Positions 1,110 to 3,251 of a stretch of DNA of 14,652 nt are shown here, in pieces; position 1 is the stretch's first letter, and every line of letters starts with the position of its first letter. The translations under genes were made by a program, and so were the position numbers. Under the pieces are notes generated by a model. The model made no database searches, was not told where the DNA came from, and worked only from the letters and a program-made list of their open reading frames with translations. Origin of the DNA: Lysobacteraceae bacterium (lineage in GTDB: Bacteria; Patescibacteriota; Patescibacteriia; JAACEG01); the NCBI GenBank assembly GCA_011682665.1, contig JAACEG010000019.1:1-14652 (forward strand), written 5' to 3'.

Positions 1110-2352
1110 AAATTTTAGCGCCTAAATTTTTTAATCTTTGAATAATATTTTCATATCCCCGTTCAATTTGATAAGTATTTCCAATTGTTGTTGTTCCTTG
1201 CGCTATCAAGCCGGCTAAAACTAAAGTAATGCCGGCGCGTAAGTCAGGGCTGTCAACATTTTTTCCAAAAAGATGAGTAGGCCCTTTAACAATGGCCCGA
1301 TGCGGATCGCACATAATAATATCCGCTCCCATCTGATTTAATTTATCAGTGAAAAAAAGACGGCCGTTAAAAATCGGATCATGGATTAAACTGTTTCCTT
1401 CCGCTTGCGTCATTAGTAAAGTAAAAGGCGCTTGTAAGTCAGTCGCAAATCCAGGATATTCATGGGTAATAATATTAACCGGATTAAATTTTTTTGTAGG
1501 AAGAGTTTTTATAAAATTTTTTCCTATTTCTAATTTTCCGCCAGCCTTTTTAATCATAAGCAAAAAAGTTTCCAAATGTTCAGGAAGACAATTAGAAATT
1601 TTTATCGCGCTTTTAGTCAGGAGTCCCATTATGACGAAAGTTCCCACTTCAATCCTATCAGGCATAATTTTTGTTTTATTCGCTAATAATCTTTTTACGC
1701 CTTTTATAGTAATAATACTTGTTCCAGCGCCTTTTATTTTTGCTCCGCATTTGTTTAGATATTTTGCTAATTCAATAATTTCTGGTTCTTGAGCAGTATT
1801 TTTTAAAACGGTTGTTCCTTCTGCTATTGAGGCCGCCATAATCATTGTTTCTGTGGCAGTAACGCTAATTTTTGGAAAAACAAAAATAGCTCCGTGTAAT
1901 TGTTTTGTTGTAAAATAATATTTATTATTTTTTTCTTCGCAATGAGCGCCTAAACTTTGCAGTCCATTGATAAAAATATCAATAGGCCGTTTGCCAATAA
2001 GGCATCCGCCTGGATAAGGAATTGTTGCTTTTTTAAAACGCGCTAATAAAGGTCCTGATAAAATAATTGAAGCGCGTAGATCTTTTCCTTTTTTTTCGTC
2101 TATATCTGTTTTTGATATATTATCAGTATTAATAAGAAAACTTCCTGACTGATTTTTTTTAATATTTACTCCTAAATCTTTAAGAATATCCATCATTTTT
2201 TTAATATCGTTGATTTGTGGAACATTACTTATTTTGTTTTCGCCTTTAGTAAGGATTGTTGAGGCTATAATTTTTAGAGCTGAATTTTTAGCGCCTTTGA
2301 CTTTTATTTCACCGGATAATTTGTTTCCACCTTTGATTATATATTGTTTCAT
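1099..2352 (-). CDS. murA: UDP-N-acetylglucosamine 1-carboxyvinyltransferase (MurA)
   Basis: This 417-residue protein is MurA, which transfers enolpyruvate from PEP to UDP-GlcNAc in the first committed step of peptidoglycan synthesis. Visible family residues are K22-N23 in KGAKNSALK, the catalytic C117 in PYPGGCLIGKRPID, D305 in YPGFATDLQAPF, R372 in DLRAGITLV and R398 in QIERGY. C117 is the residue alkylated by fosfomycin; it is Cys here and not the Asp seen in fosfomycin-resistant lineages, so sensitivity of the enzyme is expected. The length matches the family (about 420). It is the first gene of a two-gene operon with ispG, sharing 11 bp. A sigma-70-like promoter lies 30-60 bp upstream. 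No Shine-Dalgarno precedes the ATG. Confidence 0.97.
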   Translation of the reverse strand: MKQYIIKGGNKLSGEIKVKGAKNSALKIIASTILTKGENKISNVPQINDIKKMMDILKDLGVNIKKNQSGSFLINTDNISKTDIDEKKGKDLRASIILSGPLLARFKKATIPYPGGCLIGKRPIDIFINGLQSLGAHCEEKNNKYYFTTKQLHGAIFVFPKISVTATETMIMAASIAEGTTVLKNTAQEPEIIELAKYLNKCGAKIKGAGTSIITIKGVKRLLANKTKIMPDRIEVGTFVIMGLLTKSAIKISNCLPEHLETFLLMIKKAGGKLEIGKNFIKTLPTKKFNPVNIITHEYPGFATDLQAPFTLLMTQAEGNSLIHDPIFNGRLFFTDKLNQMGADIIMCDPHRAIVKGPTHLFGKNVDSPDLRAGITLVLAGLIAQGTTTIGNTYQIERGYENIIQRLKNLGAKIYAK

Positions 2353-2383
2353 AGAAAATCGTTTTTATATTTTTAATAATTTT

Positions 2384-2412
2384 ATTGTAGCGGATAAAAA
2401 GATAATTGTAAA
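2384..2412 (-). promoter_or_regulatory. promoter of the murA-ispG operon
   Basis: On the minus strand TTTACA (2412-2407) and TACAAT (2389-2384) are separated by exactly 17 bp, a good sigma-70-type match. Transcription would start near 2377, giving a leader of about 25 nt. A second TATAAT on the same strand (2426-2421) has no clear -35 box. Confidence 0.6.
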
Positions 2413-2447
2413 TACTTGGAATTATATTTGATTTCTATCTGTAAGTG

Positions 2448-2475
2448 TTGACATATTTTTTATATAAGTTATTAT
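2448..2475 (+). promoter_or_regulatory. promoter of the T-box leader transcript
   Basis: A perfect TTGACA (2448-2453) is followed after 16 bp by TATTAT (2470-2475). The predicted start is near 2482, directly ahead of the leader hairpins. It is divergent from the murA promoter, with about 35 bp between the two -35 boxes. Confidence 0.7.
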
Positions 2476-2505
2476 AGTAATAACTTTAACAATTGCAAAA
2501 TCTAT

Positions 2506-2549
2506 AAGTCAGATCCTCTGAAATAAATTCAGGGGACTGGGTCTGACTT
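2506..2549 (+). repeat. REP-like imperfect hairpin at the 5' end of the leader
   Basis: The arms AAGTCAGATCC (2506-2516) and GGGTCTGACTT (2539-2549) pair with one G-U. An inner stem CTCTGAA/TTCAGGG closes an ATAAA loop. GTCAGAC-type palindromes are typical of REP elements linked to Y1 (RAYT) transposases, but no transposase is present here, so the REP label is inference. A second short hairpin, TTTCAC-ATTT-GTGAAA (2549-2564), follows at once. Confidence 0.5.
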
Positions 2550-2568
2550 TTCACATTTGTGAAAGATG

Positions 2569-2853
2569 ATCTCTGCGTTAGTGGAGATTCGGCTTCCTCC
2601 GTAATCATAGGATAACTGATATCCCTGTCAGGGCAATAGATGGCTTTCTTTTGAAAGCATTAGCTGGATGGCTTGCCATCCGAAGCCTTGGCGTAGGATG
2701 GAGTCAGCAAAGAGATTTTAAAATCCGTTTACTGGCGGATTTTTTTAAATCCGCGAATGGATTTTAAATAATTAAGGGTGGCACCGCGGGAAATAAAGCT
2801 TCTCGTCCCTTTATCCAAATTTTATTTTGGGTAGAGAGATGAGAAGTTTTTTT
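2569..2853 (+). promoter_or_regulatory. T-box leader (tRNA-sensing riboswitch)
   Basis: The T-box core AGGGTGGCACCGCG is present exactly at 2775-2788. In the antiterminator AAGGG (2774-2778) pairs with CCCTT (2807-2811). In the competing terminator CTTCTC (2799-2804) pairs with GAGAAG (2841-2846), followed by seven T. The two forms share 2807-2809, as a T-box switch requires. Upstream, ATCTCT (2569-2574) pairs with AGAGAT (2711-2716) as a likely stem I base, and a nested AAATCC/GGATTT helix (2718-2767) fits stem III. In the family, uncharged tRNA bound by codon in stem I and by its NCCA end at UGGN stabilises the antiterminator. Here UGGN is TGGC, which predicts a tRNA with discriminator G (for example Ser, Trp, Asp or Asn). 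I could not assign the specifier codon; TGG, GAT and TCA all occur in the plausible loop (2688-2706). It controls the small ORF at 2897. Confidence 0.88.
2799..2853 (+). terminator. regulated terminator of the T-box leader
   Basis: The stem CTTCTCGTCCC / GAGATGAGAAG (2799-2809 with 2836-2846) has six unbroken terminal pairs, then one G-U and one mismatch. It is followed by T7 (2847-2853). It excludes the antiterminator, because the CCC at 2807-2809 is used by both. Confidence 0.85.
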
Positions 2854-2886
2854 GTTGAAAAATAAAAACAAAAATTAAAATAAAAA

Positions 2887-2891
2887 AGGAG
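2887..2891 (+). promoter_or_regulatory. Shine-Dalgarno of the T-box-controlled ORF
   Basis: AGGAG lies 5 nt before the ATG at 2897 within AAGGAGA. It fixes the start and shows that the ORF is translated. Such a site is rare in this window. Confidence 0.8.
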
Positions 2892-2896
2892 AAACA

Positions 2897-3139
2897 ATGA
2901 AAATTATAGTTAACAGATGTCCTTTACAATCAGATATTTTAAAATCATGCAAAAAAAATAAGCATAAGATTTTTTTTGTTTCTTGTAATGGAAAAATAAT
3001 CCACGCAACAGTAAAAAGTTTTAAGATGACAAGTTTTTCTATCGGAATTATTGAGGGAGTTGCTGATAAATATGGAAATTTTACTGCTGAATGTATATTT
3101 CCTGATGATGTTGCAAGGATAGATTTTCAGGAAGTGTAA
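2897..3139 (+). CDS. 80-aa protein of unknown function under T-box control
   Basis: I do not recognise this protein. It is 80 residues, basic in its N-terminal half and acidic at the end, with four cysteines (8, 18, 30, 66), no tryptophan, no signal peptide and no membrane segment. From about residue 24 the pattern is alternating beta strands with turns at NGK, DKYGN and PDD, ending in a strand ARIDF. This could be a small beta-barrel (Sm/SH3-like) fold, but that is a guess. A strong Shine-Dalgarno and an intrinsic terminator on each side (the T-box one upstream, 3186-3228 downstream) make it a single-gene transcript. The T-box implies that its expression rises when one tRNA is uncharged. It is not an aminoacyl-tRNA synthetase, transporter or biosynthetic enzyme, the usual T-box targets. 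The coding call is firm; the function is open. Confidence 0.8.
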   Translation: MKIIVNRCPLQSDILKSCKKNKHKIFFVSCNGKIIHATVKSFKMTSFSIGIIEGVADKYGNFTAECIFPDDVARIDFQEV

Positions 3140-3185: not shown

Positions 3186-3228
3186 AAAAGGTTCATTTGT
3201 AAAAAGCAAACGAACCTTTATTTTTTTT
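3186..3228 (+). terminator. intrinsic terminator after the 80-aa gene
   Basis: AAAGGTTC pairs with GAACCTTT, extended inward by TTTG/CAAA, and the stem is followed by ATTTTTTTT. On the minus strand the same stem is followed by six T, so it may act in both directions. Confidence 0.85.
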
Positions 3229-3251
3229 ATAACTATTTTATCAATATTTTA

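What the first reader, a model, noticed from the sequence alone, without database searches (positions are those of the whole stretch)
2569..3139. T-box riboswitch controlling a lone 80-residue protein of unknown function
The T-box core, antiterminator and terminator with T7 are all present, with a good promoter upstream. Yet the only gene before the next terminator is a small cysteine-containing protein with a strong Shine-Dalgarno. Known T-box targets are aminoacyl-tRNA synthetases and amino-acid synthesis or uptake genes. Either this is a new tRNA-responsive small protein (a starvation effector or translation factor), or an original target was lost and replaced.
Basis: partly seen in the sequence, partly recalled or inferred. 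Interest (0 to 1): 0.78.

Follow-up and report, generated by a model that had tools for sequence, protein, structure and literature searches.

The report
Tryptophan-tRNA switch driving an orphan protein
A bacterium with a tiny genome carries an RNA switch that looks built to sense uncharged tryptophan tRNA, on a shorter plan than textbook switches of its kind, in front of a small protein of unknown job; relatives carry the same switch in front of tryptophan genes and of other small proteins.

Summary
Window 2507-2853 is a real T-box leader with promoter, antiterminator, terminator and T-run; the only gene before the next terminator is an 80-aa ORF with a strong Shine-Dalgarno. The antiterminator UGGC fits G73 of this genome's tRNA-Trp. 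A covariance model of the leader matches 38 of 380 genomes of the class (three supplied the model); in 54 of 59 aligned matches the bulge ends in UGG, and 21 of 53 loci have a trpD-, trpB- or trpS-type gene among the first three ORFs. A terminator follows 51 of 53, yet Stem I is short (median about 42 nt); a 2020 review says transcriptional T-boxes generally need a long one. The 80-aa protein is a near-orphan (one homologue, 65% identical). In the same genus the orthologous leader precedes other genes, so the cargo slot varies. Small Cys-rich ORFs recur behind this leader (18 of 53). What the 80-aa protein does is not shown; Rof, Hfq and anti-TRAP readings found no support. Verdict: new variant of a known kind, moderate interest.

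The parts
2448..2475 (+). sigma-70-type promoter, TTGACA-16-TATTAT
   Evidence: 11 of 12 consensus matches; consensus scan only; similar boxes before the L017 and L002 leaders (read by eye)
2507..2548 (+). short Stem I: helix 2507-2514/2541-2548, 3' bulge ACUGG 2536-2540, helix 2515-2522/2528-2535
   Evidence: 7 of its 16 pairs change on both sides among four leaders; fold z -4.0, 0 of 200 shuffles
2538..2540 (+). specifier UGG (Trp)
   Evidence: bulge columns end in UGG in 54 of 59 aligned matches (rows include duplicates); the other five are not aligned there, UGG seen in their raw letters, though for L064 and L086 a Stem I around it was not established
2550..2563 (+). linker hairpin UUCAC/GUGAA between Stem I and Stem II
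   Evidence: two of five pairs change on both sides
2569..2588 (+). Stem II, conserved loop UGCGUUAGUG
   Evidence: two of five pairs change on both sides
2590..2613 (+). Stem IIA/B pseudoknot with F-box CCGUAA 2599-2604; AGGA 2609-2612 can pair with UCCU 2595-2598
   Evidence: invariant in four leaders, so no covariation here; F-box CCGUCA of another T-box described in PMC7583486
2616..2707 (+). Stem III, base CUGAU/GUCAG, with a lineage-specific insert
   Evidence: 36 of 53 leaders with a perfect 6-bp base, 3' arm chosen for best pairing; arms shuffled among leaders: mean 17, max 23; in the window 5 bp and an A-C mismatch
2774..2811 (+). antiterminator with T-box bulge UGGC 2779-2782
2799..2853 (+). 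intrinsic terminator with U7 tail, overlapping the antiterminator
   Evidence: z -7.1
2886..2891 (+). Shine-Dalgarno AAGGAG
2897..3139 (+). 80-aa ORF, no Trp, Cys at 8, 18, 30, 66
   Evidence: homologue P0002 65% identical
3187..3232 (+). downstream terminator; a 78% identical copy follows the second T-box unit of the genome

Best explanation
A tRNA-Trp-responsive transcriptional T-box of a short-Stem-I form found across many Patescibacteria. Uncharged tRNA-Trp pairs its CCA anticodon with UGG in the Stem I bulge and its G73-CCA end with UGGC, holds the antiterminator and lets RNA polymerase reach the 80-aa gene; with charged tRNA-Trp the terminator forms. The 80-aa protein is thus made when tryptophan is short. 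It sits in a slot whose cargo differs between close relatives and is often a small Cys-rich protein. My guess for its action (about 0.3) is a small regulatory protein that binds a macromolecule, like anti-TRAP in logic but not in target. Shown by comparison: leader anatomy, UGG specifier, differing cargo behind one leader. Inferred: the switching itself and everything about the protein's action.
For: Covariation (four of five measures reached by 0 of 500 shuffles), UGG in the bulge, trpD-, trpB- and trpS-type genes behind the same leader, tRNA-Trp with G73 in this genome, UGGN letter C in 26 and U in 27 of 53 against 0 C in the 15 of 23 other class T-boxes whose core was read, terminator hairpin after 51 of 53, specifier loops of canonical look with UGG in relatives L007 and L074, same leader with other cargo in G001 and at the second locus of this genome.
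Against: No expression or binding data. Rfam score below its cut-off in the window. The bulge lacks the 5'-strand S-turn (AGUA/GAA, recalled) of canonical specifier loops. One of five covariation measures (further pair types) is reached by 269 of 500 shuffles, and the structure was drawn from the same four sequences. U at UGGN in half the leaders needs a G-U wobble, though PMC7778990 reports the same for 46% of its Trp T-boxes. Window Stem III base has an A-C mismatch. In L081 and L075 a terminator stands between the small ORF and trpS, so trpS there may not be on the T-box transcript.
Confidence: 0.82

Rival explanations
1. The T-box is a leftover: its true target was lost and the 80-aa ORF is a chance or decaying neighbour with no role in tryptophan supply.
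For: Near-orphan protein, one homologue; not found in G001 or G003, and only two weak partial matches in the other 379 class genomes searched; cargo differs in G001.
Against: Strong Shine-Dalgarno, own terminator, intact leader; homologue at 65% identity and 83% positives over 77 aa; small proteins recur in this slot.
Confidence: 0.15
2. The protein is an anti-TRAP analogue that relieves a tryptophan-bound regulator of the TRAP type.
For: Same logic: Trp T-box and small protein (PMC11255114, start of abstract seen; PMC2494555, passages seen).
Against: TRAP (PF02081) in 0 of 38 genomes with this leader, B. subtilis control positive; no CxxC motif in the 80-aa protein.
Confidence: 0.03
3. The protein is an Sm-fold factor (Hfq-like or Rof-like Rho inhibitor).
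For: Weak Pfam Hfq hit E 0.15; helix-then-strands order in a poor model.
Against: Homologue P0002 gives no Hfq hit; hhalign to close relatives of E. coli Rof 1.1%; global alignment to three Rof proteins no better than shuffles.
Confidence: 0.07

Closest known systems
T-box riboswitch (RF00230), transcriptional class
   Same: UGGN bulge, Stem II, F-box, Stem III, antiterminator/terminator switch
   Different: short Stem I (42 nt in the window) with a bulge on the 3' side only and a 5-nt apical loop, no recognisable distal double T-loop; scores below Rfam's cut-off
Short/ultrashort Stem I T-boxes (actinobacterial ileS)
   Same: truncated Stem I used together with Stem II and the IIA/B pseudoknot (PMC7583486, passages seen)
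   Different: those are described as translational and the solved ones are Ile-specific; here a terminator follows and the specifier is Trp. TBDB (PMC7778990, passages seen) already mentions class-I hits with truncated Stem I, so single cases may have been catalogued
Anti-TRAP (rtpA) unit of Bacillus subtilis
   Same: Trp T-box in front of a small protein
   Different: no TRAP in the 38 genomes searched; the 80-aa protein has no CxxC motif; no sequence comparison with anti-TRAP itself was run

Membership tests
T-box riboswitch | UGGN T-box bulge in an antiterminator competing with a terminator | tested here: met
   (both hairpins fold and overlap; competition itself not measured)
T-box riboswitch | specifier triplet in Stem I matching a tRNA of the genome | tested here: met
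   UGG; tRNA-Trp CCA with G73
T-box riboswitch | Stem IIA/B pseudoknot with F-box (where present) | tested here: met
   CCGUAA, invariant in the four leaders compared, against CCGUCA in the review; the AGGA/UCCU pairing was not tested by covariation
T-box riboswitch | Rfam RF00230 curated score | tested here: not met
   36.9 bits against 93; only 2 of 14 control genomes have a match over it. A score cut-off, not an anatomical feature; relative L007 with the same Stem II part scores 96.8
T-box riboswitch, transcriptional class | long Stem I with distal elbow-binding double T-loop | tested here: not met
   window Stem I is 42 nt with a 5-nt apical loop; median about 42 nt over 51 leaders
T-box riboswitch | read-through on uncharged cognate tRNA | not testable with these tools
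   needs in vitro transcription
Anti-TRAP system | TRAP protein present | tested here: not met
   0 of 38 genomes; the window's own genome is 76% complete
Rof (PF07073) | sequence or profile similarity | tested here: not met
Hfq (PF17209) | profile score over the curated cut-off | tested here: not met
   12.1 bits against 27

The most novel reading that the evidence does not exclude
Patescibacteria run a tryptophan-starvation programme built on short-Stem-I transcriptional Trp T-boxes whose cargo slot holds a changing set of small effector proteins: zinc ribbons that often end in a Trp codon close to a terminator, so that ribosome stalling may add a second tryptophan check, and orphans such as this 80-aa protein, serving host-dependent life on scarce tryptophan.
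Probability: 0.3. Interest if true: 0.78.

Novelty: new variant of a known kind. Interest (0 to 1): 0.52.

Why it matters
If it switches as drawn, a transcriptional T-box can work with a short Stem I, against a published generalisation, and the regulon behind it gives a handle on how reduced bacteria respond to tryptophan shortage. In the open-licence library held, 0 papers hold both 'T-box riboswitch' and 'Patescibacteria' and 0 hold both 'T-box' and 'candidate phyla radiation'.

Tried and rejected
Rof/YaeO: a resemblance noticed by eye (C-x9-C spacing, recalled) was tested with the E. coli rof gene fetched from NC_000913: best BLASTP match 6 residues, hhalign 1.1% against 14 close Rof relatives, global alignment no better than shuffles in 6 of 6 comparisons with three Rof proteins (137 to 368 of 500 shuffles reach the score). 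The broader Rof alignment A6 was not put through hhalign. Hfq: E 0.15, not repeated in the homologue. Structure: AlphaFold2 with two sequences, pLDDT 46, not used further; no fold search was run on it. Anti-TRAP: no TRAP found. Phage or plasmid origin: no relative of the protein in viral contigs, plasmids or phages; the exact leader pattern in 0 viral contigs. Other homologues of the 80-aa protein: weak partial matches in G213, G335 (inside larger open frames) and G400 (two stops inside) were taken as chance. Discriminator: UGGC and UGGU leaders both occur in genomes with G73, so that letter does not prove specificity on its own.

Papers: the searches gave capped listings in which I saw no paper on T-boxes in Patescibacteria; the two strict searches gave 0. 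This holds for that library and those words only. PMC2494555, PMC7778990, PMC7583486, PMC11665869: passages seen. PMC5370408: passages and section 9 seen. PMC11255114: start of abstract seen in a listing.

Limits: the genome is 76% complete; trpS was not found in it. The model R1 was built from short-Stem-I leaders and so favours them. Five duplicate or near-duplicate rows (L065, L069, L073, L076, L089) were dropped to reach 53 loci, L021 is represented by L066, and the three new phylum loci (L125-L127) are not in the 53. Of the 21 Trp-gene loci, 11 rest on a Pfam family of the first ORF plus my reading of which member it is, 10 on reading alone. The terminator count has no shuffle control. 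Whether the small Cys-rich proteins also occur without a T-box was not tested (one search gives relatives without context).

Full report
What is there. The window lies in a 0.68-Mb, 109-contig, 76%-complete genome. Named contigs with the same leader pattern belong to Patescibacteria (Falkow-, Kerfeld-, Komeili-, Staskawicz-, Nealson-, Doudnabacteria and unnamed kin). Next to murA (divergent, 1099-2352) lies one transcription unit: promoter, T-box leader, 80-aa ORF, terminator; further downstream are other ORFs, among them PrgI- and TraG-like ones. RF00230 finds the T-box at E 1.9e-6 but below its cut-off, probably because Stem I is not the usual one.

The leader as a family. Four leaders (window; second locus of the same genome, L002; same genus, L017; same family, L021) align with lineage-specific inserts. 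Their common structure, drawn from these sequences, has 29 pairs formed in 112 of 112 lettered cells; 11 pairs change on both sides. Four of five measures are reached by 0 of 500 shuffles, the fifth (further pair types) by 269; sliding the partners by 1 to 3 columns drops the paired cells to 31-55%. The model R1 made from them matched 38 of 380 genomes of the class, three of which supplied the model, and 5 of 379 drawn from the phylum, two of them already known. An exact pattern from the IIA/B part lies in 27 stretches of named genomes. Over 67 sources R1 gave 59 matches.

Specificity. In 54 of 59 rows the Stem I bulge ends in UGG (51 of them NYUGG); the other five are not aligned there and show UGG in the raw letters. 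L074 has a short Stem I with a specifier loop of canonical look (AGUA ... GAAUGGA) and L007 a long one with UGG, while sharing the Stem II/IIA-B part. UGGN is C in 26 and U in 27 of 53; among the 23 other T-boxes of the class found by Rfam, the 15 whose core was read show U or A, never C. The genome's tRNA-Trp (CCA) has G73; nine of nine loci that ARAGORN names tRNA-Trp, this one included, end in G there by the pattern, which allowed only A or G. Trp genes stand among the first three ORFs in 21 of 53 loci. By Pfam family of the first ORF plus reading: Glycos_transf_3 (trpD type) in L042, L043, L053, L062; PALP (trpB type) in L045, L049, L052, L058, L071; tRNA-synt_1b in L054 and, partial, L059. 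By reading: trpB in L048, trpB-like genes in L039, L050, L055, trpS in L081, L091, L047, L075, L051, L057. The rest are mixed: phosphatase-like, PPDK-like, dehydrogenase, amidoligase, radical SAM, HAD, aminotransferase and unknown proteins. So the tRNA is most likely Trp; the target set is broad.

A short-Stem-I transcriptional T-box. In 51 of 53 leaders a hairpin of at least 10 bp (below -12 kcal/mol) ends at a T run within 170 nt after the T-box; the misses are L078 (-9.1) and L063 (no shuffle control). Stem I is about 42 nt (median of 51; the extremes of 15 and 70 come from a regex and include misplacements). The review PMC7583486 (passages) states that transcriptional T-boxes generally need a long Stem I with the elbow-binding motif and that most short forms are translational. 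By anatomy this family is an exception; function is untested, and R1 favours short Stem I by construction. TBDB mentions class-I hits with truncated Stem I, so the shape may not be wholly unseen.

The cargo. The window's leader and that of G001 are orthologous: 86% identity from inside murA through Stem IIA/B (window 2200-2623), 72% over T-box and terminator (2701-2852), then only short A-rich matches. G001 carries a LMWPc gene (E 3.7e-16) and a gene weakly like sulfotransferases (E 0.16) there. The second unit of the window's genome shares the leader (70%) and the downstream terminator (78%) but carries two small zinc-ribbon-like ORFs, whose Pfam scores stay below the cut-offs. The slot's content therefore differs within a genus and within one genome.

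The 80-aa protein. One homologue besides itself among 5.8 billion proteins; no match in 37 relatives, two weak ones in the other 379 class genomes, one with stops in the other 378 phylum genomes, none in viral contigs, plasmids or phages. Neither it nor the homologue has Trp; four Cys are shared; absence of Trp is weak evidence at 80 aa. No fold could be assigned.

Small proteins recur. 18 of 53 loci have a Cys-rich ORF under 100 aa as first likely ORF (counted by reading; L057 is partly masked). Of 17 aligned from 16 loci, 10 have Trp within the last four residues, against 5 of 158 long ORFs; the 17 are not independent. In L081, L075, L087, L090 and L080 a hairpin with T run starts 16-20 nt after the first base of that Trp codon (weak, -8 to -9 kcal/mol, in L087 and L090), in L067 and L070 30-33 nt; none was found in L039, L040 and L002. 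A nested ribosome-stalling check is possible, not shown.

Conclusion.

Noticed in passing
L081, L039, L040, L067, L070, L075, L002, L087, L090, L080: Small Cys-rich ORFs behind Trp T-boxes with a Trp codon among the last four codons (10 of 17 aligned, against 5 of 158 long ORFs); in seven of these ten loci a terminator-like hairpin starts 16-33 nt downstream of it.
   Followed up: partly
L017, L061, L074: LMW-phosphotyrosine-phosphatase-like genes directly behind the Trp T-box at three loci.
   Followed up: partly
L038, L044, L060, L088: A roughly 265-aa family without Pfam match and with a CPDYPH/CPDYGH motif directly behind the Trp T-box.
   Followed up: no
L074:3950-4076 and L007:1501-1743: Relatives with specifier loops of canonical look (short and long Stem I) but the same Stem II/IIA-B part, a possible series from long to bulge-only Stem I.
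   Followed up: partly
window 2722-2746; also L017, L067, L040, L046: A conserved terminator-like hairpin AATCCGTTT(T)ACTGGCGGATTTTTT between Stem III and the T-box in many of the leaders printed.
   Followed up: no
L057, ORF behind the T-box: Masked bases inside the small ORF of this locus.
   Followed up: no
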